A DNA stretch of 64,000 bases from Spiroplasma culicicola AES-1 (lineage in GTDB: Bacteria; Bacillota_I; Bacilli_A; Mycoplasmatales; Mycoplasmataceae). The stretch spans positions 434,001 to 498,000 of the forward strand of contig NZ_CP006681.1 in the NCBI RefSeq assembly GCF_000565175.1, read 5' to 3'. Positions 20,020 to 46,037 of this stretch are shown in pieces (position 1 is the stretch's first letter; every line of letters starts with the position of its first letter). A program made the translations under genes and the position numbers. The notes beneath the pieces were generated by a model. It was not told the DNA's origin, ran no database searches, and was given only the letters and a program-made list of their open reading frames with translations.

Positions 20020-20760
20020 ATGGAAAAAAAAGAACTATATTTAACAAATGAAGAACAGTTTAATATTGGCAATACCAATATTATTTGTATTGGATTTTTT
20101 GATGGATTGCACAAATTGCACCGCCAAATTATTGACAAAACTAAACAATTGGCCCAAGAATTTAATGAAAAATGATCAATTGTGACATTTTCAGAAAAAG
20201 TCAGTGATTTTTTATCAAAACAACACAATCAATTTCAATCAAAAATAATTAAATATTCAAATATTGAACAACAATATAATCCCGATTACTTATTTGAAAT
20301 TCAAGTAAATCAAAATACTATTTCAATTGATAAAGATCAATTTATTAGTTATTTAAAAAATAATTTAAATGTTAATAAAATTGTTGTGGGTTCAGACTTT
20401 GCCTTTGGTCATATGGGAAAAGGCCACGTTGATGATTTAGTAGCTGCATTTGGTCAAGAAAATGTAATTGTTTTTCAAAGAGTAAGTACATATTCAACAA
20501 CTGATTTAAAAGAATTGTTAAAGGATGGAGAAATTGAACAATTGAATGAAAAGATGGGACAAAACTATCAAATTCAATTGGAAAATACACATGAAGGGCA
20601 TTTTAAAATTATTGATACATTTGTACAAATTAAAAATGCCAATTATGTACTATTAGTTGATGGAAAAGAAATGATTGCTCAATTTGATCGCAATAAAGTT
20701 TTTTTTAAAGATTACATTGCAAAACAAAATATAATTGTAGAAATGATAAAGAAAGTATAA
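20020..20760 (+). CDS. ribF: FAD synthetase RibF, adenylyltransferase module
   Basis: 246 residues, against about 310 for standard bifunctional RibF. The FMN adenylyltransferase half is recognisable: nucleotide-binding CIGFFDGLHKLH (H-x-x-H variant of HxGH), KIVVGSDFAFGHMGKGHVDDL, and STTDLKELLKDGEIEQLNEKMGQNYQI in place of SSTxIRxLL. The riboflavin kinase half is reduced to about 75 residues without clear kinase motifs, so the protein may make FAD from FMN only (inference). Starts at ATG 20020, coupled to truB. Confidence 0.88.
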
Positions 20761-20762
20761 TA

Positions 20763-21674
20763 ATGTTTAGAAAAAGCTTATTTACATATCCAGGAAATAA
20801 ATTTAAGGTTTTAGAAGAAATTGCATCTTATGTAGATAAAGAAGATATCTTTTTAGACTTATTTTGTGGTAGTGGTGTAGTGGGGTTAAATATGCCCTGT
20901 AATGAAGTAATATTAAATGATATAAATAGTAATTTGATAGAAATATTAGATTTTTTTCATAAGAATTCAAAAGAAAAAATTATAGCTAGAATAGAAGAAA
21001 AACTTGAATACTTTAATCTTTCAAATTCTTATAGGAATGGTTTTAAATATTATAAGGAACAAGTTGAAAATAAAAATAATGGTTTAAAGGAATATAATAA
21101 GCAAAATTATAATATATTTAAGAATCATTATAACTTATCTTTAAATAAAGATGTTTTAGACCTTTTTATTTTAAAAACTTATGGTTTTAATAATGAAATA
21201 CGGTTTAATTCTGTTGGAGAATATAATATTCCTATTGGTAAAACAGATTTTAATCAAGCAACTGTAAATAGAATTGGCAGTTTCAAGGAATTATGTTCAA
21301 TAAAGAAAATAGAATTCTTAAATTATGATTTTGATAGTAAAGAACTAAAAAAATATATTGATAAAGCTACAGTTATATATATAGATCCCCCATACTTATT
21401 AACATTAGCAACATATAATTCAACATGAAATGTTGAGGAAGAACAAAGACTTATTAATTTTATGCAAGATTTAATTAATAAAAAGAAAAAAATAATTATT
21501 TCAAATATTTTAAATAGAGGTGAAAAATGTAACCAATATTTAAATAGCTTTATTAAAAAGAATAAATTAAATGTAAAAATAGTTGAAATTAATTATGCAT
21601 CGTCTAGTTATAATAAAATAAATAGGGGAATGAAAGATCTAGAGGTATTAATAGATAATTATGAATCCAAATAA
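20763..21674 (+). CDS. DNA adenine methyltransferase, D12 class (first of pair)
   Basis: 303 residues. Transfers methyl from SAM to N6 of adenine. SAM-binding motif I is DLFCGSGVVGLN (from residue 32) and catalytic motif IV is DPPY (208-211), in the alpha (D12) order. The N-terminal YPGNKFKVLEEIASYV is typical of D12 enzymes. It overlaps the second methyltransferase by 14 bases. Two D12 enzymes beside one nuclease suggest an asymmetric site with one enzyme per strand (compare the two fused halves of M.FokI). Begins two bases after ribF and marks the left edge of the defence island; ATA and AGA codons become common from here. Confidence 0.9.
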
Positions 21675-22707
21675 TAGAAGATATATAGGGAATAAATATA
21701 ATTTAAAAGATTGAATTTTTTCTGAGATAGAAAATTCCTTAAACCAAAATAATGATATTAATAAAAATTTTAAATTTATAGATGCCTTTTCTGGAACTGG
21801 TAGCGTAGGTTTAAAATTTGCGGATGAAAACTATGATGTCGTTTTAAATGATAATTTATATCATAATTTTTTAATTTATAATGCATTTACTGGAATTGAT
21901 AAAATTAATATGCCTAAAATGGAACAATTACTAGAAAATTATAATAATTATGATTATGCTGAAGGAAATAACAATCATTTCTCAAATTTATTTGGAAATA
22001 AATATTTTTCATTAGAAAATTCCTATATTATTTGAGAAATTAGAAAAGACATAGAAGAATTATATTCAGATAGTAAAATTAATTTTTATGAGTATAGCTA
22101 TTTAATTTCTGCTTTACTTTTAGCCACTGATAAAGTTGCAAATACAGTAGGCCATTATGAAAGTTTTTTAAAAAGAAGTGAAACTAGTAGTATAAAAAAA
22201 ATTAATTTAAAACATTTATCATTAAAAACTTATTATGTTAATTTTCAAATTTTTAATATGGATATTAATCAATTAATTCAAGAACAAAAATTTGATTATA
22301 ATTCAATTTTATATTTAGATCCTCCTTACAATGCTAGACAATATATAAATTTTTATCATGTTTTAGAATATATCTCAATTGGTAAAGAAAGTGAAATTTT
22401 TGAAGGCAATTCTATGAAGTTTAAGAGGGATCATTTAAAAAGTGAATATTCAAGATCTAAAGCCATTTATTATTTTGAAGAACTTGTGAATTATTCTTCT
22501 TCTAAATATATTATATTATCATATAATAATACATATAATGCTAGATCAACTGCTTCTAATAATAAAATGTCAGAAAAAGATATATTAAAAATCTTAAACA
22601 AGATTGGTAAGGTGAGCATTGTAGAAAAGGATTATGCATTTTTTAATTCAGGAAAGACTAAATTAAATGATCATAAAGAAAGGTTGTATATTTGTGTGAG
22701 ATACTAA
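21661..22707 (+). CDS. DNA adenine methyltransferase, D12 class (second of pair)
   Basis: 348 residues. N-terminal NRRYIGNKYNLKDWIF, motif I DAFSGTGSVGLKFAD (from residue 41), motif IV LDPPYN (D220). The C-terminal region has HERLYICVRY-like ending and IILSYNNTYNARSTA, common to D12 enzymes of type II systems. Overlaps both neighbours, so the MTase pair and the nuclease are translated from one coupled mRNA. The target sequence cannot be inferred. Confidence 0.9.
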
Positions 22708-24028
22708 AACTATAAGTAATTTAATAGCAAATATAACTAATAGTGATTTAACAACAAGACATAACAAGGGTAATACTCATATTTTTACAGAGTATCTAAA
22801 TACTAATAGAAGAAATTTCAGCACCTTAATACATTCAATGAAATTTATTATTAAAGCTGATGAAAATAAAAAACAGAAGTCTGGACAATCACGTTTTAAA
22901 CAACATGAACCCAGACTGAAATCCTTAAATTTTATTATTAAATTGGGTCAAGATAAGTTTCAAATTACAGAATTAGGTGAGGAATTTTTAAAATATATTA
23001 ATTATATTGAAACTCTAACATTAGGAGAGATAGAGTTTAAGATATTAAAAAATATATATTGCTTTTTAATATTATTTTCAAATTTAAATAAAAGAGATAA
23101 TAATTATTTTTTATCAGAATATTCAAAATTCAAACATTTTCTCTTGAAAGTTAATAGACAAGAAAAATTATTTGAAGATTTATGATCCATATATCTTAAA
23201 AATGGTGAAGAATTAACTGAAAAAGAATATATTGCGTTAATTAAAATTAGAATATATCCATTTTTAAAAGATGATTTAGATAAAGAATTTGCATCAGATA
23301 TTGATTGAAATCGAATAGTAGCAGAAAACCAAGATTCTATTTTATTTGAATTTAGTGACAGTTATCATATATCAACATTTTTTGCAGAAATACTAATTAT
23401 GTATTTTTTAGATCTTTTATTAAAAGGACTAGATTTTGATGATACATTGGAAAAAATATGCGAACATTTGGAAATAAATAATTCAGATATTATTTTCCAT
23501 TTAAAGGAAATAGTCTTTAATAGTAGTTTTACTTTAAATTTTTATGATGTAATAACTGAAAACATCGTGAATTATGAAATTAATAGAGATGATATAAAAA
23601 GACAATTAAAGAAAAATGTTAATAGTTATTTATCAAAGGAAAAACATAGAAATAACTTTAAAAAAATTAATGTTAGAGATAGAACATTATTTAATCAAAA
23701 TAAATACATTGTTAAAGAATTTTATGATTTTCAATGTTTCTTTGAAGAGAATTATAGCTGTCGTTATTTTAAACAGTATAATTCAGTGAAGAATTATGTA
23801 GAGATACATCATATAATTCCGCATTCTAAATCAGATAGTTTTAAAAATTCTATTGAAGTATTGGGTAATTATATTTCACTTTGTCCAAATTGTCATAAAC
23901 AAATTCATAATGGTACTAGAAATGATGTTGAGATGATGCTTAAAAAAATTTATGAGTTTAAACAGCAGGAATTAATGGAAGAAAATTTAGAATGCACATT
24001 TGAAATGTTAATGAGTTTTTTCTTTTAG
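22667..24028 (+). CDS. Type II restriction endonuclease, HNH family (probable)
   Basis: 453 residues. An N-terminal region of about 370 residues without recognisable motif (presumably DNA recognition) is followed by a C-terminal HNH nuclease. That domain has EIHHIIPHSKSDSF, then LCPNCHKQIHNG, giving the His-Asn-His/Cys-x-x-Cys zinc arrangement around residues 380-415. Start chosen at ATG 22667 with GGAAAG ten bases upstream; GTG 22694 with AAAGAAAGG is an alternative. Overlaps the second methyltransferase, which fits expression of modification before restriction. Confidence 0.8.
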
Positions 24029-24131: not shown

Positions 24132-24497
24132 ATGAATTGTAGCCCATATGATTATTTGAGTAAAAAAGAATTAGGTGTTTGAGACAAAGCAAAGAGGTGC
24201 GCTTGTCCTGATAATGACTGTGAACAAAATCATAAAATATGTGCTTTATGTTTGGGAACTATTGTTTTTGCAGCGTATGTAGAATGTCAACCAAATAGTG
24301 ATTTTAAATGAAATATTGATCATATAATTCCTAAAAAAAGATTTAACAGTTTAATAGGAGAAGCAATAAAAAGAAAAATAGTATCTGTAAATGATGAAAG
24401 AAATTTACAAATAGTTCATGTTTCATGTAATGAAATCAAAGGTGATAATTTTAACAGTAATGAAATAAATGGCTATGGCATAATAGAGTACAATTAA
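24132..24497 (+). CDS. Small HNH endonuclease-like protein
   Basis: 121 residues. Cys-rich N-terminus (CACPDNDCEQNHKICALC) followed by an HNH core WNIDHIIPKKRFNS and NDERNLQIVHVSCNEIKGD. Resembles stand-alone HNH nucleases that accompany restriction systems. Possibly a Vsr-like or accessory nicking enzyme of the preceding R-M system, but that is inference. RBS AAGGACAAA. Own terminator downstream. Confidence 0.7.
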
Positions 24498-24654: not shown

Positions 24655-26082
24655 ATGGAAAGAAAGGATCAATATTTATCTAAGGTTAGACATACCAAAG
24701 ATATTATTATTGAGGTTTATACAAAGAATAATTTTAATTGAATGGTTGGTTTTTCTGGTGGAAAGGATTCTACAGTTTTAGTTCAAATTATAATGGAAGC
24801 ATTGTTAGAGATTCCCAACATTTCTAATTTTGATAATATTATTCATATTGTTAGTTCTGATACATTAATTGAAAATCCTATTGTTTTAAAGCAATTAAAT
24901 ACTTCATTAAAATTAATAGAAAATTTTGCAATTGATAATAAATTACCAATAAAAGTACATAAGGTTGAACCCGATATTGAAGAATCATTTTGAGTTAATT
25001 TAATTGGTAGAGGTTATCCTTTACCAAATCAAAGTTTTAGATGATGTACAGATAGATTAAAAATTAAACCAATGAATCAAAAAATGGAAGAACTTTCACT
25101 AAAAAATGAAGTTTTAACAGTTCTTGGTGTAAGAAAAGGTGAATCTGCTTCAAGAGATATAAAATTAGTCAAGAATGATATTAAAGATTCCTTATTCAAG
25201 AAGAATGATACAAATAATAAATTAATATTTGCCCCAATTGAAGAATTCAGTCTATATGATATTTGAAGTTATTTAGCAGAATCGCGAATTAATTTTTTTA
25301 AAACAAATAATAATACTTTATCTTTACTTTATGAAGATTCTTCAGTTGGAGTTGAAGAATGCCCTTCAAGTTTAGATGACAAATTACAAAAAGGATGTGG
25401 AAATTCACGATGAGGATGTTGATTGTGTCCAGTAGTTACACAGGATAAATCATTAGAAGGCTTTGTAAACTCAGGACAAACTTGGTTAAAACCCTTATTA
25501 GAATTTAGAGAAGAACTTATTCAAGGTAGAGATAAAGTTTTAAATAGGTTTAATGCATCATTAAGAATAAGTAAAACCAGTAACAATATTTCTTTACTTA
25601 AATACAGATATATGGATTTAAAAATAAAAAATGATAATTATTTTTTACCTAAAAAACTTGGTAGAGATGAAATACGATTTGGATATTTTGATAAAAATAA
25701 AAATATATTGATTAATGATAAAAAAATAAAAGTTATTAGTGAAACAGAATATAAGAATTTAGTAGATACAAATATTATTGATCCTTATTCAAATTCTTGT
25801 GCAGAGGAAATATTTGAATATGTTATAAAACTAGATAAAAATAGTAATAATCAAATTCTTTCAGTTCCTGGTTTAGGACCTTATACGTTGAAATACAGAA
25901 AGGAATTATTAAAATCTATTAAAAAATTAAAAAGAGAAATGTCTAGTTATGATATTGAAATTATTTCAGATCAGGAAATTAAATTAATCGAAAAAATTAT
26001 AGTAAATGTAGAAAATAAATTAAATGAGAGGCATTTTAATATAACAAAAGAAGGAGAAAAAGTATATGAGTCAAGAATATAA
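24655..26082 (+). CDS. dndC: DndC-like PAPS-reductase-family protein (DNA phosphorothioation)
   Basis: 475 residues. In Dnd systems DndC is an ATP pyrophosphatase with an Fe-S cluster that helps place sulfur in the DNA backbone. PP-loop SGGKDST at 34-40; HIVSSDTLIENP; FWVNLIGRGYPLP; FRWCTDRLKI with C131; LGVRKGESASRDIKL; and CGNSRWGCWLCPVV with C248, C255 and C258, giving the four expected cluster cysteines. LLEFREEL follows. These blocks match DndC very closely. Unusually, no dndA, dndB, dndD or dndE is nearby; a MORC-type ATPase, Z1 and DUF4420 follow. Overlaps the next gene by 17 bases. Confidence 0.92.
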
Positions 26083-27847
26083 TGAAGAGATGGAAATTCC
26101 GCGTAGTAATAGGGAATATTTAGGCTATATTGATAAAACAACAGACCATATTTATATGTTGTCTGAATTTATAGATAATTCTATTCAATCTGCAAAAGAT
26201 CATAAATTTAAAAATGTAGAAGTAAAAATCTGTATTGATAAGAAAAAGGGAATTTTATATATTAGAGATGATGCGGGTGGAATTGCGTTTAAAAATAGAG
26301 GAATTGCCATTAAAAATGGAAAAGATGAGACCGAACAAGGAGATACTTTAAATATGTTTGGTGTTGGTATGAAAATGGCTTCTATATGATTTGGTAGGAA
26401 AATGACATTTTTTACAAAATCAGTTGAAGATGATTTTAGTTATTCTTTAACTCTAGATGTAGATAAATTGGAACACTCAGATTTTAAAGTTGAAGTTCAG
26501 AAGAACATTGATATTACATCAACATCAGGAATAGATTTTCTACATGAGCATGGAACAATTGTGAAAATTGAAAATTTTCATTTAAATGGTCCACATGCAG
26601 GTAGATATGATAAAAAAATGTTTGTTAAAGGCGATAAAAAAGATGGAAAAGCACTTGAAGAGCAAATAGCTTGTCGTTTTTCAAGATATTTAAAAAATCA
26701 TTTTTTAAGAATAACTTTTAGTTATATTGATGATAAAGGCCTAGAACAAATGGATGGTACAAAACCACTTGTTATTACAGAAAGTACAATTCCAAATTTA
26801 TATTTATCTCAAAAAGACAAAAATGATTATGAATATTTACAAGGTAAAAATGTTAAAGAGGCAACCTTTTATAAAAAGATTATGAAGGAAATCTATAATA
26901 AATATGAAAGCATGTTTGATAATGATATTGAATTTGGTGATTTAACTTATAGAAAGATAATTGAAACTTTTGAAAATCAAGAAGAATTTAAATTTAAAAC
27001 CAAAATTCAATTAGATGAAAAATTTAATAATATAAAAATCCCTTTTACTTTTGGATATATTAAAAAAGAAAGTGCTTTTATGAAATATACAGGTTTATCT
27101 GTTTATCAAGATGATAGAGCAGTAATATCAGGACCAAATACAAATAAAACAAAATTAACATGACTTACTTTTGATAAAGCACTATCAAATAAATCTGTAA
27201 AGGTAACACTGCGTTTTATTGGAGAAATTGATTTAAATAATAAATCAATGTTTAGAGTAGATAATAACAAAATGGGTTTTCATGGAACAGTAAAAGAAGA
27301 TATTGAAGAAATTATTTCTAGAAAATTTCAAAAACATTTGGCAGATCTAATTGATAAACTTTTAGATATTATTTTATATAAAGATGAACAACATGCATCT
27401 GATGAAGCTATAAGAATTGAAAATGAAAGATTTGCAAAAGAAATTAATAAACATAACATTTTAGAAAATTGTTCAGTTGAAACTGAAAATTTAAATGTAC
27501 ATGAAAATGATGGAGAAAGACCTGTTAATTCTTTTAAAGTATTAGATAAAGTAACAAATGAGTATAAATTTAATTTTATACATTATTTACAGGATTTAGA
27601 TGATCAAAGAAGAATTTTTAGAGCAAATGTAGAAGTAGATAATACAGAAGGCAAATATTTATATATTTTATTTGTAAACAAGAAATTTGTTGGCTTTAAA
27701 CCAACTATGAAAGATGAAGATTTTTCAGTATTAGTAAATCCGATTATTAAATTAATTATTCATAGTTTAAAAGATGTTAAAGATCATGAAGCAAGAGTTG
27801 AAAAATTTTATAATATAGTTGAAGTTATTCAAGGTGATGAAAAATAA
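26066..27847 (+). CDS. MORC/MutL-like GHKL ATPase (Mza-type)
   Basis: 593 residues. GHKL ATP-binding site: N-box LSEFIDNSIQSA (N38), G1 box RDDAGGI (68-73), G2 box GVGMKMAS (99-106). A transducer-like region follows and an acidic C-terminal domain about residues 400-593. Prokaryotic MORC/MutL-like ATPases next to Z1 and DUF4420 proteins were described as part of restriction-like operons and, with an AIPR protein, as the Mza defence system (literature knowledge). Likely senses or remodels DNA. RBS AAGGAG within the end of dndC. Two TGA Trp codons. Confidence 0.85.
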
Positions 27848-27848
27848 T

Positions 27849-29258
27849 ATGTTTAAATTTATAAAAGATTTAACTATTGAATATAGAAATAACTTTGTTG
27901 AAAATGATCACTATAAAAAATTGAAAAATAATTTTTTAGAATCAAATCCCCATTATATGAAAGATGCATATCGTGATGTTTATGAAGTAAATGTTAAAAA
28001 TACTTTAAGTGTTTTTAATGATGAATTAAAAAGAAGTAGTATCTTATTAGCTGGTGAAGTGCAATCGGGTAAAACAAATAATATGTTATTTATAACTGCA
28101 GCATTAATTGGTCTTGGTTTTAATAAAATTATTTATTTTACAGGTACAAAAAATAATTTAAACAAACAAAACATAAAAAGATTTAAAGATTTTTTTAAAG
28201 ATGCAGAATTTAAAGATTTTTCAAATGCAAAATCTTTATTTAATAATTCAAATAAGGTTGAGATATTTTATGGAATTAAACAAAATCTTGGAAATATTAA
28301 CTCGTTATTAAATGATATGGATATAAGTCAATATGAAAACTGAAATGTTTTAATTATTGATGATGAATGCGATGAAGCCTCATCTGAAAAAACTAAAGAA
28401 AATAGAACCGTTAATGCAAATATTTTAAAATTATATGAAACAAATTTTAAAAAAGTTGTTTATTTGCCAGTAACTGCAACACCTTATGCAAATTTAACTT
28501 CATTTACTGATGGTTTAGCACCAAATTATGTAATACCACTTGTTTCATCAACTTCATATTGTGGATTAAAAGTATTTTCTGATAATGACTTATATAAAAT
28601 TATAGATAAAAGTATTGTAGATAAAATTTATGCTAGGAATTTTGATGTTCAAACTGAAGAAATTTTTATGAAATATATAATTGATTTTTTAATAGAATGT
28701 TATCGAGATGAAAAGAATTATCAATTCCTTATCAATATAACTGTAAACACAACTCCAATAAAAGACTATGATAAATATATTAGAAAAATCATTTCAAAAT
28801 TAAAAGTTAAAAATAAAGCTTTTTATAATAATTTTATTGGAAATGATGAGTATATTAGTTTTAAGCAATGACTAGATAAATTAGAAGTTAAAATGATTAT
28901 TGAAGGTTTTGAATATATAAGAACAACTAATCCAGAAATAATAATTGGGGGCAATTTATTGTCAAGAGGTATAACTTTTGATGATCTAATTTATGAAATA
29001 ATGTTAAATCACTCTGAAAGTGGAATTTTTTCAAGTGATACTTTATTGCAACGTGCTCGATGGTTTGGATATAGACTTCGCTATATTTATAAGATGAGAA
29101 TTTATACATCTAATATTGGCTATAACTTTTACAACAATATTTATGAAATTGATACACGTATAAGAAGTTTATATGAAAATGATTATTCAAATTCTAAAGA
29201 TAAAATTATGCGAATAAAAGATATTTTTAAAGAATATTCATATAAATGAACAAATTAG
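27849..29258 (+). CDS. Z1-domain ATPase/helicase-like protein, short form
   Basis: 469 residues, about half the usual Z1 protein. Walker A GEVQSGKT (residues 69-76), DEAD-like box IIDDECDEASSE, VTATPYANLTS, and the Z1 signature GGNLLSRGITFDDL followed by LQRARWFGYR with the arginine finger. So the SF2-type motor core is complete while the C-terminal domains of longer family members are missing. Start set at ATG 27849, one base after the ATPase stop, with AAGGTGATG as RBS. Confidence 0.85.
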
Positions 29259-29269
29259 GAGAATAAAAT

Positions 29270-30232
29270 ATGAGCATAAATGATACAGATATAAATATTA
29301 TTGATCAAAAAAATGGATATATTTTTTTCACTACAACTGATGTTAAAAATTTTTATATTTTAAAACCAACTATGTATAATGCTTCTCTACCTAAATCAAT
29401 TAAACCTTTGAAAAAACCTAATTTTTCTTATTATCCTTCTGTGAATTCAATAACTAGTTTTCAAAAAGAAGATGCTAGAATTAGAGTTTTACCCAATTAT
29501 AAAGTTGCAATCGAATATAATGATAAAAAAATGGATGGAGAAGTTTTGGCATTTGAAAAAGGTATAAATATAAGAGTTGCTGAATTAATATATACAACAT
29601 TTATAAATACTCATGAAATAGCAAATTCAATGTTTGAGATTGTAAAAGAATTTGAAAATATATTTGGTCTTATTTGAAAAATTGATAAAAAATTTCAAAT
29701 AGGTTTAATTGGTGAATTACTTGTAATGCAAAAAAATGAAGATTATATAGACATTTTAATGGAAGGTTTTCATGGAGAAAATATAGCTGATAAAAATTTT
29801 GAATCAATTACAGATTTTGAACTAAAAACAAAAAAGGGAATAAAAAATATAGAAGTTAAAACTTCTATATCAAATGAAGGGCTATTTACATTAAAAAATA
29901 ATCAATTAAATACAAGTATTAATGATTATTTTGCAGCTGTTACTATAGAAATAGTTAAAAAAGGGGGTCAAACATTAATTGATTTAATCGATTGATATTT
30001 AGAACTTCCTTCCTTAAAAAGTGAATTAAAAAATATGTTTTTAGATTTGAAAGAATCACATGATAGTAGAAATTTATTAAGATTCGATCCAAGAACTGTA
30101 AAATTAAAATTTATTGATATACACAAATTACCAAAAATTCAAAATACAGATGATAGAATTAAAAATATTAAATTTCAAATTGATCTAAACCATTTTGAAG
30201 ATATCCAGTTAAAAAGCATTATTGCCTCTTAA
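29270..30232 (+). CDS. DUF4420 (PD-(D/E)XK-type) nuclease-like protein
   Basis: 320 residues. The C-terminal half carries GLIGELLVM, then SITDFELKTKKGIKNIEVKTS at about residues 180-202, giving Glu, Asp and E-x-K of a PD-(D/E)XK nuclease. This is the DUF4420/PF14390-type protein that accompanies MORC-type ATPase and Z1 genes. The N-terminal half is beta-rich. Last gene of the operon; its stop lies inside a 14-bp terminator stem. RBS TTAGGAG. No AIPR gene follows, unlike full Mza loci. Confidence 0.8.
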
Positions 30233-30254: not shown

Positions 30255-30602
30255 TTATTTTTCATAAAAATAGCTATGACTTTTTACAAAATCAATAACT
30301 TTTTTTATTTCAGATTTTGTTTCATTAAATATTGCAGCTTCAATAGCCATATCCAAAGTTTTAAGTAAATCGTTTAAACCGCTGTAAGAATCAAATTCAG
30401 GATCATATTTTTTAGCTGTGAAATCATATAATAAAAAATATGAATAATAAATTCTTGCTTCATCATCGATACTTTCATGATATTCTTCTGAACTATTATT
30501 CTTTTTTTCAGAAAGGTTGAATTGTTCATTATTATATCTGCTTTTTAATTCTTGAGCTTCATTATTATCTTTTGGAATAATTAATGTTTTTTTTACTGCC
30601 AT
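30255..30602 (-). CDS. Small acidic protein, unknown
   Basis: 115 residues. Lys/Thr start (MAVKKTLIIPKDNNEA), a polar Asn/Ser/Glu-rich middle, then an amphipathic helical C-terminus (SGLNDLLKTLDMAIEAAIF). Strong RBS (AGGAGGC) on the minus strand. The only minus-strand gene in the island, between the DndC operon and viperin. Could be a regulator or an antitoxin-like accessory; nothing in the sequence proves it. Confidence 0.6.
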   Translation of the reverse strand: MAVKKTLIIPKDNNEAQELKSRYNNEQFNLSEKKNNSSEEYHESIDDEARIYYSYFLLYDFTAKKYDPEFDSYSGLNDLLKTLDMAIEAAIFNETKSEIKKVIDFVKSHSYFYEK

Positions 30603-30760: not shown

Positions 30761-31627
30761 ATGTATACAATTGAACAATTAAATAGTATTAAATTGAATT
30801 TTCACTTTAGTATGTTTTGCAATATGAGATGTAAATTTTGCTTTTATGCTCCATTGATTGCAAAAGCAAAACGTGAAGATAATTTAAACAATTGATTAGA
30901 AATAATTAAAAAAGTTGCCTTTTTTAAAGCAATTAACTTTGCAGGTGGAGAACCTACACTTTATTGAAATCAATTAAAACAAATGGCTAAACTATGTAAA
31001 GAATTAGGTCTTAAAGTTACTTTAATAACAAATGGAACAGTAATTAAAAATAAATCTCAAAATGAAGTAAATGATCTATTACAGTATTTTAATAGTGTGG
31101 GAATTAGCATGGATTCAATTGATTTAAATATAAACCAAAATTCAGGTAGAGCGATTGGCAATAAATCTGCATTATCTGAAGATGATTATTTAGAGGTTGG
31201 AGCAAAAATAAAAAAAGCAGGGTGTCAACTTAAAATTAATTCTGTAGTTCATTCTTTAAATAAAAATACAAGGATGATAGATTTTATAGAAAAAATTGAT
31301 CCATATAAATGAAAAATAATGCAAGTTAGTTCTGTTGGTCAAGAATTTCATAAGGATTTCATTATTTCTAAGTCTGATTTTGATAAATTTTTAGAAATAA
31401 ATGATATTAAAAATAAACATAGTTTTGTAAAATCAATTGAAGATGAAACTACTGTTACATCAACTTATGTGATGATTGATGGAGAGGGATATTTCTATAA
31501 TTCAGATCAAATATATAATAAGAATAATAAAAGTATTTTAAAAGAAAATGTAGATGTATTAGAAGAATTTAATAAATGTAATTTTGATATAAATTCTCAA
31601 TTAGATAGATATAAAAATGAAAAATAA
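30761..31627 (+). CDS. Prokaryotic viperin (radical SAM antiviral enzyme)
   Basis: 288 residues. Viperins convert nucleoside triphosphates to 3'-deoxy-3',4'-didehydro forms that stop viral polymerases; prokaryotic homologues protect against phages (literature knowledge). Radical-SAM cluster C20-x3-C24-x2-C27 in FCNMRCKFCFY, preceded by LNFHFS; INFAGGEPTLYW; LITNGTVI; ISMDSID; SGRAIGNK; CQLKINSVVHSLN; YKWKIMQVSSVGQEF; and the C-terminal ETTVTSTYVMIDGEGYFYNS. These match viperin block by block, including the C-terminal region absent from MoaA-like enzymes. No nucleotide kinase neighbour. Confidence 0.9.
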
Positions 31628-31760: not shown

Positions 31761-33185
31761 ATGAAACAACTTATAGTTAAGATGAAAACAATTATTAATG
31801 ATGAATTATTGGCTTATGAGAAAAAATCAAAAATAACAAATAATAGAATAAAACAATCATTGTATAAAAAGAATGTAAATTTTTTAAATGAAAGAAGTAT
31901 TGCATTTCAAATAACTAAAGCTTTAGAAAGTCACTTAAACTTGTTGAATTTAATTATTTACTCTGAATTTCATTTGAAATCACAAGTAACGCTGACTCAG
32001 AAAGCAAAAAAAGATATATCATTGGAAATACCTGAGTATAAAAAAGAGTCTAATAAATATGATTATTATCCTGATACATATCTATCTTTTAAAAATAATA
32101 AAGGAATTATTACTGACATTTTTATTGAATATAAAGTAGATAGTGCTTTTTCATTTAGAAAATTGGCGGGAGATTTTTTGAAATTTAAATATTATACTTG
32201 AAAGGGCAAAGGCAATAATAATTTTATATATATTCTTTTTGGTAAGAAAAATACTGCGGGAATTGAAATCCCATGTATGTATCAAGTTCATGACAATAAT
32301 AATATTCAAGAAATTAATAAATATTTAATTGAGAAAGATTTAAACAAGAAAGCGAATATTTTTTATTACATTAATGATAAAGGCAATTCAGTTGAAATAA
32401 AAGAAAATACGCTTATTAATGCTAATAAACTATTGGATGAAATTATCAAACTTGAAGAGGAAAATTTATATAATGAAATTCATGATTATTCACAAAAAGA
32501 TTATTTCTCAAATATAAATCAATTTATTTTTGGAGAGAAAGTTTTACTATCAAAGATAATTCAAAATAATTTTTATCAGATTAAACAACTTTATAAAGAA
32601 ATAATAGAAAGAAAAAATATTAATCTACTATTACCTAAAAAAACATATTTATCAATTAAAGATTTTGTAAAAAATGATATTTCAAATATTAGTTTAACAG
32701 TTAAAGAAATAGCAAATCATTTCAATAAACAAATTATTAGAAAGTCTACTAGTTCAAAAAAAGGTATAAACCAAGCTGAATTTACTATTAGGCTAAAAAG
32801 ATCACTTTGAATGTTAATAATATTAGATAAATTTTCAAAGGATAATGATTTTAAAACTAGAATTTTAAATGAAAATAGTTTTAGTCAAAGAGAATGAAAT
32901 GAAATTGAATTATTGAAAGAACGTCTTGATGAAATATATAAAAGTAAAGAAAATTTTAATATTTTATCATTGGGATTAATTTATTATATTGTTAATTTAT
33001 ATGAAGAAGTTGGAGCACTTGAAGGTAATGAATATGTATTATCAAAAGAATTTAAAGCATTTAGAACTAATAAGAAAATTGAAAAATATATAAGAAATAT
33101 ATGTGAAGAATTAAATATAAAAAATGAATCTGAAGACATTTCTGATAAAGAAATAGGATTAAATATCATTAATGCGTTATTATAA
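31761..33185 (+). CDS. Large unknown protein with nuclease-like motif
   Basis: 474 residues, soluble. Residues about 90-145 (YYPDTYLSF ... TDIFIEYKVDSAFSFRKLAGDF) contain PD, then an E-Y-K triad spaced as in PD-(D/E)XK nucleases, followed by FIYILFGKK as a possible core strand. The rest is helical and Lys/Glu-rich. RBS AAGTGAGG. Follows viperin by 133 bases without an obvious terminator and may be co-transcribed. A restriction-like nuclease or viperin partner is possible; unproven. Confidence 0.6.
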
Positions 33186-39571: not shown

Positions 39572-40342
39572 ATGCATGTAATTAAAAATGATAGTTATTT
39601 TTTTGCGTTTAATAAAAGAAGCGCCTATAACATTATAGAAAGATTTAAAAATAAAAGATTGGTGGTAATTGACTTTGAAGCTTTTCAGTTTCACATGAGA
39701 AATAAAAATAAATTTAAACAAATTACAATAAATGATATACCATATACAGTTTGTTTAAACACAATGACATTTAATTTTGATTTAAATCAATTTATTTCAA
39801 CAAACGAAAAAGTTTATCAATTTAGAGATGAATGAAGAAGTGAAAATGAATTATTATTAGAACTTGAGAAAATGGCTATTTTTATTGCAAATTATGTTAA
39901 AACTAATGAAATTGACTATTTTTTATTTATGGCAGATTTTTTAGAAAAACGAGCATTAGAATTTTTTGTTACTAAATTTGGTGCTGAAATTAACTTGGAT
40001 AAATACTTGAACATAAGGGGTTTTGATTTATATAGTGGTTTCTTTTTTAATGAATCAAATTTTAAAATTTTATCCTATAAACATAAAGTTCAAGACATGA
40101 TAAAAACTTTTATGTATAAAAATGGTGATGAATATGAAAATTTTGAAATCGGAAGAGATGGGATGAAACATTTTGAAGAAATTTTAAAAGGTAGAAATTC
40201 TGATGTATTAAATTTTGAAAAAGTAAAGAAACATAGCTGAATTGATTTACAGAAGGGTACTGAGTTAATGAATTATATTTGTCAATTAGCAAATTGACCA
40301 GAGGAACTAATTTTAAATATAGATTTATTAAAAAATGAATAA
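39572..40342 (+). CDS. DEDD exonuclease-like protein, family A copy 1
   Basis: 256 residues. Begins with a short basic segment then RLVVIDFEAFQF, a D-x-E as in exonuclease motif I. Residues about 105-130 (NEIDYFLFMADFLEKRALEFF) and GFDLYSGFFF correspond in order to exonuclease motifs II and III, but the catalytic Asp residues are not clear. Related to the gene at 46398, which has IIDIEAFSW and IIYFGGLLERKNFKF at the same places. Start at ATG 39572 with GGGGGT upstream; an earlier ATG lies within the terminator hairpin and was rejected. Confidence 0.6.
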
Positions 40343-40355
40343 AGAGGATAAAAAT

Positions 40356-42680
40356 ATGTATGTTAAAAAGTTTGAGAAAGCAAAATTTATTGAATTTCAT
40401 AATGGATATGAATGAAAATGAAAATTTGAATTAAATTCTGGAAAACACATAATTGTAGAACAAGGGGTTTTAAAATTTATTCTTGGACGTGTTCCTATTA
40501 AAAATGAAGAACTTTTATTAGAATTTAAAGTTAATCATATTGAAAACCCAAATGAATTAATTAAAATAAAAAGTATTTATTTGGTTCATGAATATAAAAT
40601 TAAAATTCTAACTGAAATGATAAGTGATATATTAAATCCAATTGGGATTAATCCATGAGATGTATATAACATATTAAAAAAAGTAGAACGAAAAATGTAT
40701 GCAAGTAATAGTGAGAGTTCTACTTCTTATAACTATTTTGTTAAGCAATTAGAGAAATTTGCACAAAATATTGAAAGTGAAAATAGAGATATAAAAACGG
40801 GAATCGATAAATTAATACCTCTAAAAAATAAAATTGAATCTATTAAAAAATATGAAAAAATGATTTTATTTTATTTAGATAATTCAATTAAACCTTTATA
40901 TATAAATCAATTATTGTTTTCTTTGAATTACCAAAAAATTGAATTTGATCTTTCTGATAATTTAATTAATTATATTACTAACTTTTTTTATGATCAACAC
41001 AATTATGATCTAAAAAATGAATTTACATATATTAATGATTTGTTAATCAGTTTAGGTGTTTTGGTTAATGATAAACTTAGAATGGCTTATGAAATGCGAT
41101 ATCTTTGTACTTTGAAAGCATTTGATACTGGAAATACTTATTTAGAAAAAGATGAATTTAATTCATTATTCGAATATAAATTATTATTTGAAAATAGAAA
41201 TGAAATAACTCAAACATTATTCAATAAAAAATGAATTATAGAAGAGAATAATGTAATTTTTGAAAAATTAATCTATATACAAGAAAAAAGTGTCTCTGAA
41301 AAATTGGTTCATTTTCTTATGGAAAATAATGAATTAACTAATAATTTAGATGAATTTTTATTTAATAAAACAATTGAAGAAATAAAATTGTCTGATGAAC
41401 AAAAAGAAGCTTTAAAGTTATTTTCAAATAATAAAATACTTTTAATAAACGGTGGCGCTGGAACTGGAAAAACAACTGTTATAAAAGCTATGATTGAATT
41501 ATTTTTAAAAGCTTATCCAATGTCTTCTAAAAAAATATTTGTTGCAGCTCCAACAGGGATGGCTGCAAATAATATTAAAGAAAAAATGAATGATGATATA
41601 TTTAGGAACACTAAAATTGGTACAATTCATTCAATTCTTGAAGCAATTGATTTCCATACATTTATGAGAAATGAAAATAACAAAATTGAAGCTGACTTAT
41701 TAATTGTTGATGAATCATCAATGATTAATTTATTTGCATTTTATAGTTTATTTAAAGCAATTCCAAATACTATTAAAAGAATTGTGTTCATTGGAGATAG
41801 CAATCAATTACCACCAATTGAAGTTGGTAATGTTTTTGAACAGATGGTTAATTTTGATTTCATACCAAAAGTAACTTTAAAACAAAATCATAGGCAATTA
41901 AATGGTAAAGGTATTATTGAGTTATCACAAAAAATATTAAGCAATGATCTTAATAGAACAAATGTTTATGAATTTATTGATTCATTAAAAAAATATTCAG
42001 ATATTGAAATGATGTTTGATATCAAACCTGATGAATTATATGAAATGATGTATGAAAAATACAGTGTACCAAAAGAAGAATACATTCAACAAAAATTTCA
42101 AATAATTACTCCAGTCACATCTTCAGAAAAAGAATATTCTTATAATGATTCAAAATTAAATACAAAAATTTCAAATAAAATAAATACTGATAAAAAGTTT
42201 CATAAAAATATTAAATTAAATGATAAAATAATGATTTTAAAAAATGATAATAATATTGAAATTTATAATGGACAATTGGGATGAATCAATCCAAAAGAAA
42301 ATAAAATAGATGATGTAATATTTTATAATATGAAAATGAAAAACAAAGATTTACCTATATTTGATAATTCAAATCAAATATATACTTTTGCTTCATCTTC
42401 AACAGTTCAAATGAAATTGGCCTATGCAATAACTGTTCATAAATCTCAAGGAGGAGAATTTGATGAGTTAATGTATTGTGTTGAAGGCAAAACAAGTAAT
42501 GAAAGATTATTTCACAATAAAAGAATGGCATATACTGCAGTAACACGAGCAAAAAATAATCTAATTCTTTGTGGAAAAAAGGAAGTTTTTGTTGAACAAA
42601 TATTGACAAATTTTAAAAATATAAAATCAATGATGATTTATTTTATCAATAATTGTTTAACAGTAAAAGAAGGAGAATAA
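40356..42680 (+). CDS. RecD2-like SF1B DNA helicase
   Basis: 774 residues. N-terminal about 340 residues include an OB-like start and helical region similar in layout to RecD2. The motor: Walker A NGGAGTGKTT near residue 366, APTGMAANNI (motif Ia), TIHSIL, LIVDESSM (motif II), IGDSNQLPPIEVGNVFEQM (motif III), LKQNHRQ (motif IV), ITVHKSQGGEFDELM (motif V) and AYTAVTRAKNNLIL (motif VI). Predicted 5'-3' DNA helicase. RBS AAAGAGGA. Followed two bases later by an OB-fold gene, so a helicase and a possible ssDNA-binding protein are co-expressed. Chromosomal RecD2 copies normally sit elsewhere. Confidence 0.88.
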
Positions 42681-42682
42681 TA

Positions 42683-43021
42683 ATGAATTTATTTATTGGG
42701 ATTGGAAATATTTCAAATATATCTGAATTAAAAATAGCTAAAAATAATCAACCATTTGTAAATGCAACATTATGAACAACAAATATTGGTGCTGAAAAAT
42801 TACAAAAACAAATCATGGTGATGTTTCAATCATTTGGAAATATTGCATATGAACTTGAACATATTAAAAATGATATTACTAAAACTGATGAATTCTTAGT
42901 AATTGGGTTTGCAAATATATCTTCAAATTTTAAAGGTATAAGTATAGAAAAAATTATAAAAATAAATGATAAAACTGATATTAACAATTTCTTTGAAAAT
43001 GAATTATGGAAAATATTATAG
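42683..43021 (+). CDS. Small SSB-like OB-fold protein
   Basis: 112 residues. The N-terminus MNLFIGIGNISNISELKIA followed by NNQPFVNATLWTTN follows the beta-1/beta-2 pattern of single-stranded DNA-binding proteins (MNxxxLxGxLxxxPELxxxxxGxxVxxxxLAxxR). No acidic SSB tail (it ends FENELWKIL). RBS AAGGAG. Overlaps the next gene by 16 bases. Probably coats or hands over single strands for the neighbouring helicase; inference. Confidence 0.55.
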
Positions 43022-43500
43022 ATATAAATGTTTTATTTAATAAATATAAATTGAAATATCCTATTAGTGAGATTAACCAAAAAATTAATCAATTAGTATT
43101 GGATAAAAAAATATATTTATTAAATAATGCAAAATTTTCGTATTCTTTTATTAAAGAATACGAAAAAAATGAAGAAAAAATAAATGATTTTGTTAATAAA
43201 ATCTTAGAATACAGTTACTTTGCTACATTTGTAGACGATAGTCTTTTAAGAAAATATTGTATAGATCTCTATGAGTTTATACATACAGTACAAAAAAAAG
43301 ATTATAAATTTGAAATATATGGAAATATTATTACTAAAGGATGTAAAATACATATTTGAAAAGAAAATAAATTATCTTTTGAACAAGTTATGAAAATAAT
43401 TGAAAACTATGATGAAGAAAAACAATGTGAAATACTAAAAAATGAGTATTTTTCATCAAAATTTGAATATTCAAAATATATAGAAGGAAGGTTTAAATAA
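43006..43500 (+). CDS. Unknown protein between OB-fold and Z1 genes
   Basis: 164 residues, helical and charged, no signal or membrane segment. N-terminal MENIIDINVLFNKYKLKYPISEINQKINQL resembles a winged-helix-like start. Overlaps both neighbours (stop TAA shares a base with the next ATG), so it is strictly coupled with the OB-fold and Z1 genes and likely belongs to their complex. No family recognised. Confidence 0.6.
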
Positions 43501-46037
43501 TGACAAATAATGCTGAAACAATATATAAACAGTATTTAGCTTTGGAAAATTTTAATATGTTTTCAAAAGCTGAAATTATTGATAAATTAGCTATTAAATT
43601 TGAATTACCAAAAGAGCAAATTTTAAAAATAGTATCTGAGGATCCAAATAGAAATATTTTTAATTTTAAAAATTCAAAAATATTAAAATATAAACCAATT
43701 GAGGAATTGGAATTAACAAATTTTACAAATTATTTACAAGGTTTAAATAGAAATTATATTGATTTAAAAAACCTTAAAGAAGAAACTGTTGATATTTTAA
43801 AACAAATTAGTGTTGCTGATGAGGTTGAAGAATTCAAAATTAAAGGATTAGTAATTGGAGATATTCAGTCAGGTAAAACTTCTTCAATGGTTGGTTTGAT
43901 TAATGGAGCTTTTGATATAGGTTATAAATCAGTAATACTTTTATCTGGTTTAATTAATGATTTGCGTGAACAAACAAGTAAAAGGTTAAATCAAGGTTTT
44001 GGTGTTGAAAAAGATGAAATTAATTCTTGATTTGATTTAGAAAAACAAGACATTGTAAATCAAACAATAGATGGAGAAATTTCAAAATCAAATTCAACAC
44101 GTTATATGTTAAACGAAACTAAAAAAACATATTGAGTAACTAAAAAAACAGTTCCTATTTTAAAAACACTAAATTCTTTATTTGATCAATATCATGAGTT
44201 TTCACTTAAACCTACAAGCGATGGCAAAGAATCTGATTTAACTAAAACATTAAACTCAAAAATATTAATAATTGATGATGAAGGGGATTTAGCATCTCAA
44301 GATGCTTCTTCTGCTTCTTCAGAAAATGTTACAAAAACAAATGCATTAATAATTGAATTGATGAAAAAATTCAAAAAAGTTTCTTATGTTTCTTATACAG
44401 CAACTCCGTTTGCTAATTTATTAACAGATAGAGATAAAACTCATGAGGGAGAAACATTATTTCCTGATAAATTTATTTCGTTAATTACACCAGGAATAAA
44501 CTATACTGGTTTTTCTAAGTTTAATCGTTTATATTCAGAGTTTAATAGTGTTAAATTTCTTAATGAAGAAAAACTAAAAGAATTTAAAAATGATAATTTT
44601 ATAGATTTTGATAAATACAATGATTTTATTGAGACCATTAAAGTATTTTTATTTACAACAAGTTTATTCAAATTAAACGAAAATTCAATGGTTGTAGAAA
44701 ATGAATATTTTAAAACAATGTTAATAAACATTGACATAAAAAATGATAATCAAATTCTTTTTAGAAATCATGTTCAAAATATTTTAATGCAAATTAAAAA
44801 AGAATTTATGTTTAATACTGAAAGTTTTAAAAATGAATTAGAACAAATTATAAAAGATAAATATTTTAATTTATATTACTTATTTATTGAAAAATTTAAT
44901 TTTGACTTTTGAAATACTTTTGAACATGTTTTAGATAATGCGGAAATTAAAATTGTTAATAAAGATAATATAGATTCAAAAGTATTTGAAATTGAAACTT
45001 CAAAGATTGAAAAGATACAAATAGTAATTGGGGGATTCAAATTATCAAGAGGACTTACAATTCCTGGACTATTCACAACTGTATTTTGAAGAAATACAAA
45101 TACTTTTGACTCTGCAATGCAAATGTGTAGATGATTTGGTTATAGAGATAATTATTTGGAATACATAACTGTATTTACAACTAAAAAAGCTTGATCAGAT
45201 TTCTACAGTATGTTTGAAACATATGATGACTTTAAAAAAGAAGTTACGTTCCAAGAAGAACAAGGCCTAAGTGCAGATGAATTTATAATAAAAATTAGTT
45301 CTGCTCACAGATTATTACCTACAAGTAAAAATAAAATGAAGGGTGCTGATAAAATATATGATAAATGATCAAAAACTGGAAGAAATCAAATCTATAATTA
45401 TGATTTAGATGAAAAAATTTTGGAAAATAATTTAAATGTCTTGAGTGAATGAACAAAAGAGATAGAGTTTACAGAATATAAACATAACTTTATAGCACAA
45501 AACGTAAAATTTAATAATATTAAAAACTTACTTGAAAACCTAACTTTTGAAAATATGGCAAAACAAAAAATTGATAATCATTGTATGATTTTTGATAAAA
45601 ATCAATCTGATAAATGAGATGTTGTAATTAAAAATATTCATAGTAAAGCAAATGGTATACATTATTTAAATGAAAATATATCAATCAATTTAAGTAAAAA
45701 AAGTTTTGTTTGAAAACATATTGATAATAAAAATATTGCTCATGTTAGAACAATTTTAACAACTGATTTTGAAAATTATTTTTTTGATTTAGAAGATAAT
45801 AATGTTAACAATCAATATGAATTTAAAAGTAAGTTATTGGATTTAAATCATCCTGTGTTGTTTATTTCATTACTGAAATTTGTAAATGAAGTTGAGGATG
45901 AAAATAATCAATCACAATTGCCAGTAGTAGCAATTGCATTTTATAATCCGCATGAAAAGGAAATATATAAATCAAATAAAATTGTTTATATAAATACTTC
46001 AGGCCAAGAAATTACTGAGGAAGAAATTTTATCTTAA
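43500..46037 (+). CDS. Z1-domain ATPase/helicase-like protein, full length
   Basis: 845 residues. Walker A VIGDIQSGKTSSM near residue 120-130, ILIIDDEGDLASQ, YTATPFANLL and the Z1 signature IVIGGFKLSRGLTIPGL with MQMCRWFGYRDNYLEY, plus about 300 further residues typical of long Z1 proteins. Contains five or more TGA Trp codons. It differs strongly from the short Z1 at 27849 (they share only the core motifs), so this is a separate system. No MORC-type ATPase or DUF4420 is adjacent. Confidence 0.88.

What the first reader, a model, noticed from the sequence alone, without database searches (positions are those of the whole stretch)
30761..31627. Prokaryotic viperin in a Mollicute
All viperin blocks are present in order, including the C-terminal region that separates viperins from MoaA-type enzymes. 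Viperin makes chain-terminating nucleotides; in a wall-less minimal cell with a small nucleotide pool this is notable. No nucleotide kinase is adjacent, unlike several known prokaryotic viperin loci.
Basis: partly seen in the sequence, partly recalled or inferred. Interest (0 to 1): 0.75.

Follow-up and report, generated by a model that had tools for sequence, protein, structure and literature searches.

The report
Viperin in a Spiroplasma defence island
A mosquito-associated wall-less bacterium (Spiroplasma culicicola) carries an apparently intact copy of viperin, an antiviral enzyme that makes chain-terminating nucleotides, next to other anti-phage genes; it is an ordinary member of a known family in a bacterial group where it has hardly been noted.

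Summary
Window 30761-31627 (+) is one 288-codon gene under code 4 (three TGA=Trp). It passes NCBI's viperin equivalog cut-off (234 bits against 180) and PADLOC's model for viperins without a kinase. It folds like solved viperins (Z 29; best other radical SAM enzyme 19) and keeps the viperin signature residues. In a tree it sits inside the prokaryotic viperins, in a clade of Bacilli, Treponema, Selenomonadaceae, Helicobacter and Mollicutes. The gene lies in a defence island behind ribF: an adenine-methylase/HNH restriction system, a DndC + MORC-type ATPase + Z1 helicase + DUF4420 cluster, then viperin. The host has MetK and a NifU/SufU scaffold. Viperin is patchy in the order (6 of 320 genomes over cut-off) and broken in one relative. 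It is as diverged between species as ordinary orthologues and under purifying selection, so it is old in the genus, not a recent import. No kinase is adjacent, but that is usual. Most likely it is a ddh-nucleotide synthase that protects against phages. Substrate and phage protection are untested. New member of a known kind; interest modest.

The parts
30761..31627 (+). viperin (288 aa, code 4): radical SAM nucleotide dehydratase; Fe-S cysteines C20, C24, C27
   Evidence: NF038283 over cut-off, PADLOC pVip, AlphaFold model pLDDT 86 and fold match Z 29 to viperins, tree, residues
20020..20760 (+). ribF (FAD synthetase), conserved left border of the variable region
   Evidence: Pfam PF06574; found in all 20 genomes of the genus; in relative G180 the next gene shared downstream lies 4 kb away, here 43 kb
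20763..24028 (+). restriction-modification set: two D12/Dam-type adenine methyltransferases (20763-21674, 21661-22707) and an HNH protein (22667-24028)
   Evidence: Pfam PF02086 twice and PF01844, PADLOC MTase_II
24655..30232 (+). second defence cluster: DndC-type sulfurtransferase (24655-26082), HATPase_c_3/MORC-type ATPase (26066-27847), Z1-domain helicase (27819-29258), DUF4420 PD-(D/E)XK protein (29270-30232)
   Evidence: TIGR03183 DndC 325 bits over cut-off 290; Pfam PF13589, PF10593, PF14390; MzaB/MzaC weak matches
30255..30602 (-). 115-aa hypothetical gene pointing away from viperin
   Evidence: no Pfam, NCBIfam or PADLOC match
31761..33185 (+). 474-aa orphan gene 133 bp downstream of viperin, possible partner or separate defence gene
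   Evidence: no family match; in the genus only in this genome; no plasmid or viral relative

Best explanation
The gene encodes a working prokaryotic viperin (SAM-dependent nucleotide dehydratase). Shown here: family membership, fold, and conservation of the cluster-binding cysteines, the GGEP/SAM region and the viperin-specific C-terminal residues; a setting in a defence island; purifying selection; a host with SAM synthetase and an Fe-S scaffold. Inferred from the family: the [4Fe-4S] cluster splits SAM, the 5'-deoxyadenosyl radical takes H4' from a bound ribonucleoside triphosphate, and loss of the 3'-OH gives a 3'-deoxy-3',4'-didehydro-NTP. That product terminates RNA chains made by phage (or host) RNA polymerase and so lowers phage yield. 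It acts as a stand-alone enzyme without a dedicated nucleotide kinase. Which nucleotide it uses (CTP, UTP or GTP) cannot be read from the sequence.
For: NF038283 equivalog over cut-off and full length; PADLOC pVip E 5.6e-64. Model (pLDDT 86, pTM 0.87) matches mouse and Trichoderma viperins with bound CTP at Z 28-29, next family Z 19. Of residues aligned with mouse viperin, N77, H79, C84, C88, C91, GGEP, S180, R194, K220, N222, W246, K247, E293, Y302 and D306 are identical in the window. The tree places it deep inside viperins, with long non-viperin branches outside. dN 0.19 against dS about 1.27 (near saturation) with the G191 copy. MetK, NifU_N and four other radical SAM proteins are in the genome. 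Neighbours are R-M and DndC/Z1/DUF4420 genes. Published: expressed Asgard viperins protect E. coli from T7 (PMC11291487); bacterial viperins make ddhCTP, ddhUTP and ddhGTP (PMC10732462).
Against: No activity measured. Only 9 of 48 Asgard viperins gave anti-T7 protection in the first assay (PMC11291487), so membership does not guarantee defence in a given assay. The mouse Lys120 position, which I recall as a phosphate contact, is Ala here, as it is in most of this clade. Shared location in a defence island is only association. The relatives G191 and G182 have it outside this island. One relative's copy is broken, so the gene is dispensable.
Confidence: 0.85

Rival explanations
1. It has viperin chemistry but its role is not phage defence: ddh-nucleotides act on host metabolism or transcription, or (in a mosquito-associated cell) affect RNA viruses of the insect.
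For: Metabolic roles are argued for the eukaryotic enzyme (PMC9642334). The gene is old in the genus and keeps an ordinary rate of divergence. In G191 no neighbour looked at was a recognised defence gene.
Against: Patchy presence, a broken copy in G193, different location in each genome, and repeated neighbourhood with defence genes (window; G182, G230, G238) fit defence better.
Confidence: 0.1
2. It is a different radical SAM enzyme (MoaA, PqqE or peptide-maturase type) that looks like viperin.
For: It shares the radical SAM core; weak hits to MoaA (44 bits) and PqqE (50 bits).
Against: The prokaryotic viperin model scores 4-5 times higher and over cut-off; fold gap Z 29 against 19; C-terminal viperin residues kept; inside the viperin clade.
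Confidence: 0.02
3. The gene is a decaying, inactive remnant.
For: The copy in G193 is broken; most relatives lack the gene.
Against: Full-length frame, catalytic residues intact, purifying selection against both intact relatives.
Confidence: 0.03

Closest known systems
Prokaryotic viperins (pVips; NCBIfam NF038283; PADLOC PDLC02903, without kinase)
   Same: Full-length match over the curated cut-off, all signature blocks, fold, kinase-free arrangement, defence-island setting
   Different: At most about 36% identical to members outside the genus; Tyr29 after the CxxxCxxCF motif is found only in the three Spiroplasma sequences among 98 (others mostly Ala, mouse His); Ala57 where most other viperins have Lys/Arg; read with TGA=Trp
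Kinase-linked viperins of Bacteroidetes (PDLC02904, PDLC02905)
   Same: Same enzyme domain
   Different: They carry a fused or adjacent P-loop kinase; none here
Eukaryotic viperin (RSAD2, mouse 5VSL/6Q2P)
   Same: 29% identity over 261 residues, same fold and catalytic residues
   Different: No ER/lipid-droplet N-terminal helix, no C-terminal extension ending in Trp
MoaA (GTP 3',8-cyclase) and other radical SAM maturases
   Same: Radical SAM barrel and CxxxCxxC
   Different: Score far below viperin models; C-terminal region unlike

Membership tests
Prokaryotic viperin (NF038283) | Curated equivalog HMM over cut-off across full length | tested here: met
   234.3 bits, cut-off 180, profile 2-281 of 281
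Prokaryotic viperin (NF038283) | Radical SAM CxxxCxxC cluster motif and GGEP SAM region | tested here: met
   C20, C24, C27 and G62-P65; invariant in the alignments
Prokaryotic viperin (NF038283) | Viperin-specific NxH near the N-terminus and C-terminal E...SY...D residues | tested here: met
   N13, H15, E227, T235-Y236, D240 align with mouse N77, H79, E293, S301-Y302, D306
Prokaryotic viperin (NF038283) | Phylogenetic position inside viperins, not among other radical SAM enzymes | tested here: met
   107-row and 46-row trees; smallest large supported set 23-24 rows, all viperins
Prokaryotic viperin (NF038283) | Fold closest to solved viperins, C-terminal part included | tested here: met
   Z 24-29 to 11 viperin entries, next 19.0; model residues 1-288 covered
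Prokaryotic viperin (NF038283) | Produces a ddh-nucleotide | not testable with these tools
   needs biochemistry
Prokaryotic viperin (NF038283) | Protects against phage | not testable with these tools
   needs infection assay
Kinase-associated viperin (PDLC02904/02905) | Adjacent or fused nucleotide kinase | tested here: not met
   no kinase domain among the genes scanned; kinase queries have no match in the window
MoaA | TIGR02666/02668 over cut-off | tested here: not met
   43.8 bits (cut-off 284) and 41.2 bits (cut-off 325)

The most novel reading that the evidence does not exclude
The Spiroplasma viperins are a sub-family with an altered nucleotide pocket (Tyr29 next to the cluster loop, Ala57 in place of the usual Lys/Arg), hence a different substrate range. 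In Mollicutes the enzyme works together with a helicase/ClpA-like four-gene defence system that abuts it in three of seven full-length viperin loci (G230, G238, and a remnant in G182).
Probability: 0.12. Interest if true: 0.55.

Novelty: new member of a known kind. Interest (0 to 1): 0.35.

Why it matters
It extends a shared eukaryote-bacterium immune enzyme to wall-less, genome-reduced insect bacteria. There a nucleotide-based chain terminator must be tolerated by a small host whose own RNA polymerase is exposed to it. The 72%-identical G191 copy, the 53%-identical G182 copy and the broken G193 copy give a natural comparative set. The held open-access library has no paper on viperin in Spiroplasma or Mollicutes: four papers mention viperin and Spiroplasma, none about this, and none holds viperin, Mollicutes and defense systems together. 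The gene passes the cut-off of NCBI's own model, so automatic annotation very probably names it already.

Tried and rejected
Non-viperin radical SAM enzyme: rejected by HMM score, fold and tree. Artefact of reading stops through: rejected, since the organism uses TGA=Trp and neighbouring and relatives' genes also need it. Recent horizontal import: not supported; identities to G191 (72%) and G182 (53%) lie inside the distribution for reciprocal best hits (medians 60% and 59%) and GC is that of the window. A single Mollicute clade: rejected if G279's copy is included (AU p 0.021), not rejected without it (p 0.32). Dedicated kinase: none. The 474-aa downstream gene as an MZA-type or other known partner: no match in any library, no relative found. 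A first genome-contig scan with the single sequence found nothing; an alignment of relatives was needed. Phage records: no match; several IMG/VR contigs carry related viperins, but not close ones. Substrate prediction from sequence was not attempted beyond listing unusual residues.

Full report
What is there. Under code 4 the interval 30761-31627 on the + strand is one gene of 288 codons with three TGA codons read as Trp; under the standard bacterial code it falls apart. The window is G000:C1:434001-498000 of a one-contig genome of 1,175,131 bases. That is exactly the size listed for Spiroplasma culicicola (PMC5091035), a mosquito-associated member of the Apis clade (PMC10232968).

Identity of the protein. 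NCBIfam NF038283 (viperin_w_prok, equivalog) scores 234 bits against a cut-off of 180 over its full length. The next non-viperin family scores 58 bits and MoaA 44. PADLOC's model for viperins not associated with kinases scores 214 bits, ahead of the kinase-associated (191) and kinase-fused (135) models. The AlphaFold model built from ten relatives has pLDDT 86 and pTM 0.87. Eleven viperin entries match at Z 24-29, including mouse and Trichoderma enzymes with bound CTP; the best other radical SAM enzyme has Z 19.

Residues. I aligned 98 viperins with mouse viperin. The cluster cysteines, GGEP, and mouse N77, H79, S180, R194, K220, N222, W246, K247, E293, Y302 and D306 are all kept in the window protein; R245 is Lys. 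Which of these touch the triphosphate is from my memory of the mouse-nucleotide structures and was not tested here. Two departures stand out. Tyr29, just after the cluster motif, is found only in the three Spiroplasma sequences (mostly Ala elsewhere, His in mouse). Ala57 stands where mouse has K120 and most prokaryotes Lys or Arg; this Ala is shared with 14 other rows, all in the same wide clade.

Relatives and phylogeny. In 320 genomes of the order, 8 have a match at E<=1e-25 and 6 pass the cut-off: this genome, G182 and G191 of the genus, and G229, G230 and G279 of another family; G238 scores just below, and G193 holds a broken copy. In a class-wide sample 12 of 395 match at E<=1e-40. The trees put the window protein with G191 and G182 (support 100), inside a 23-24 row clade (98-99) of Mollicutes, other Bacilli, Treponema, two Bacteroidales, Selenomonadaceae, Synergistaceae, a Fusobacteriaceae and a Helicobacter, well inside viperins. 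One clade for all seven Mollicute sequences is rejected (AU p 0.021); without G279's copy it is not (p 0.32). So at least two acquisitions by Mollicutes are likely.

Age and selection. Viperin identity is 72% with G191 and 53% with G182; reciprocal best hits between sampled parts of the same genomes have medians of 60% and 59%. dN is 0.19 and 0.35 against dS above 1, near saturation. The gene is therefore old in the genus and under purifying selection, although its position differs between species: the only neighbour shared with the window is a small gene (24132-24497) that also lies near the viperin locus in G182 and G193. This pattern suggests repeated loss or movement; which of the two is not resolved.

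Setting. The conserved genes up to ribF (20020-20760) are shared with relatives. In G180 the next gene shared downstream lies 4 kb beyond ribF; here it lies 43 kb beyond, just outside the window. G186 and G194 carry cytosine methylase genes behind ribF, with a GmrSD-type and a MutH-type gene respectively, so the site behaves as a hotspot for defence genes. Here it holds two adenine methylases and an HNH protein; a DndC (325 bits, cut-off 290) with a MORC-type ATPase, a Z1 helicase and a DUF4420 protein; then viperin; then an orphan 474-aa gene. Further on are a RecD-like helicase and a second Z1 protein.

Can the host run it. The genome has MetK, a NifU/SufU-type scaffold and four other radical SAM proteins, so the cofactors the enzyme needs are plausible. 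A reductant was not looked for.

Kinase. The P-loop kinase fused or adjacent to many Bacteroidetes viperins has no counterpart in the window. This is a normal state, for which PADLOC has its own model, and not a peculiarity of this locus.

Mechanism. Shown: family, fold, residues, context, selection. Inferred: SAM cleavage, H4' abstraction, formation of a ddh-NTP, termination of RNA chains, phage protection. Bacterial viperins make ddhCTP, ddhUTP and ddhGTP (PMC10732462). In E. coli, 9 of 48 Asgard viperins protected against T7 in the first assay (PMC11291487), so protection must be tested, not assumed.

Side finding. In three of the seven full-length Mollicute viperin loci the gene abuts the same SF1-helicase to ClpA-like ATPase system or its remnant: about 45 bp downstream of it in G230, at its other end in G238, and about 10 bp downstream of a remnant of the last gene in G182. 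Full-length relatives of that ATPase occur in many Mollicute genomes without viperin, so it is a neighbour by preference, not an obligate partner. The window's viperin is not beside it.

Verdict. It is a new member of a known kind, in a defence island, with modest interest.

Noticed in passing
window 24655-30232: DndC (over the TIGR03183 cut-off) in one tight cluster with a MORC-type HATPase, a Z1 helicase and a DUF4420 PD-(D/E)XK protein, with no DndB, DndD or DndE recognised beside it: perhaps a phosphorothioation-linked relative of MZA-type defence.
   Followed up: partly
window 20760-64000: About 43 kb between ribF and the next gene shared with relative G180 (4 kb there); other species carry methylase and restriction-like genes at the same site, which looks like a defence hotspot.
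   Followed up: partly
L025:113-10143, L027:1499-10935, L022:9117-10796: A four-gene SF1-helicase/ClpA-like ATPase system abuts viperin in three Mollicute genomes (as a remnant in G182).
   Followed up: partly
L012:1483-3693 (-): In a Bacilli genome (G526) a ribonuclease III domain (PF00636) is fused to the N-terminus of a viperin.
   Followed up: no
L024:9188-9998: Viperin of G193, 92% identical in part to the intact G191 copy, is broken (stop and frame change).
   Followed up: no
window 40335-46037: RecD-like helicase, two small genes and a full-length Z1-domain protein (MzaC-like, 845 aa): a second candidate defence cluster.
   Followed up: no
window 24132-24497: Small 121-aa conserved gene without a known family, near the viperin locus in G182 and G193 as well.
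   Followed up: partly
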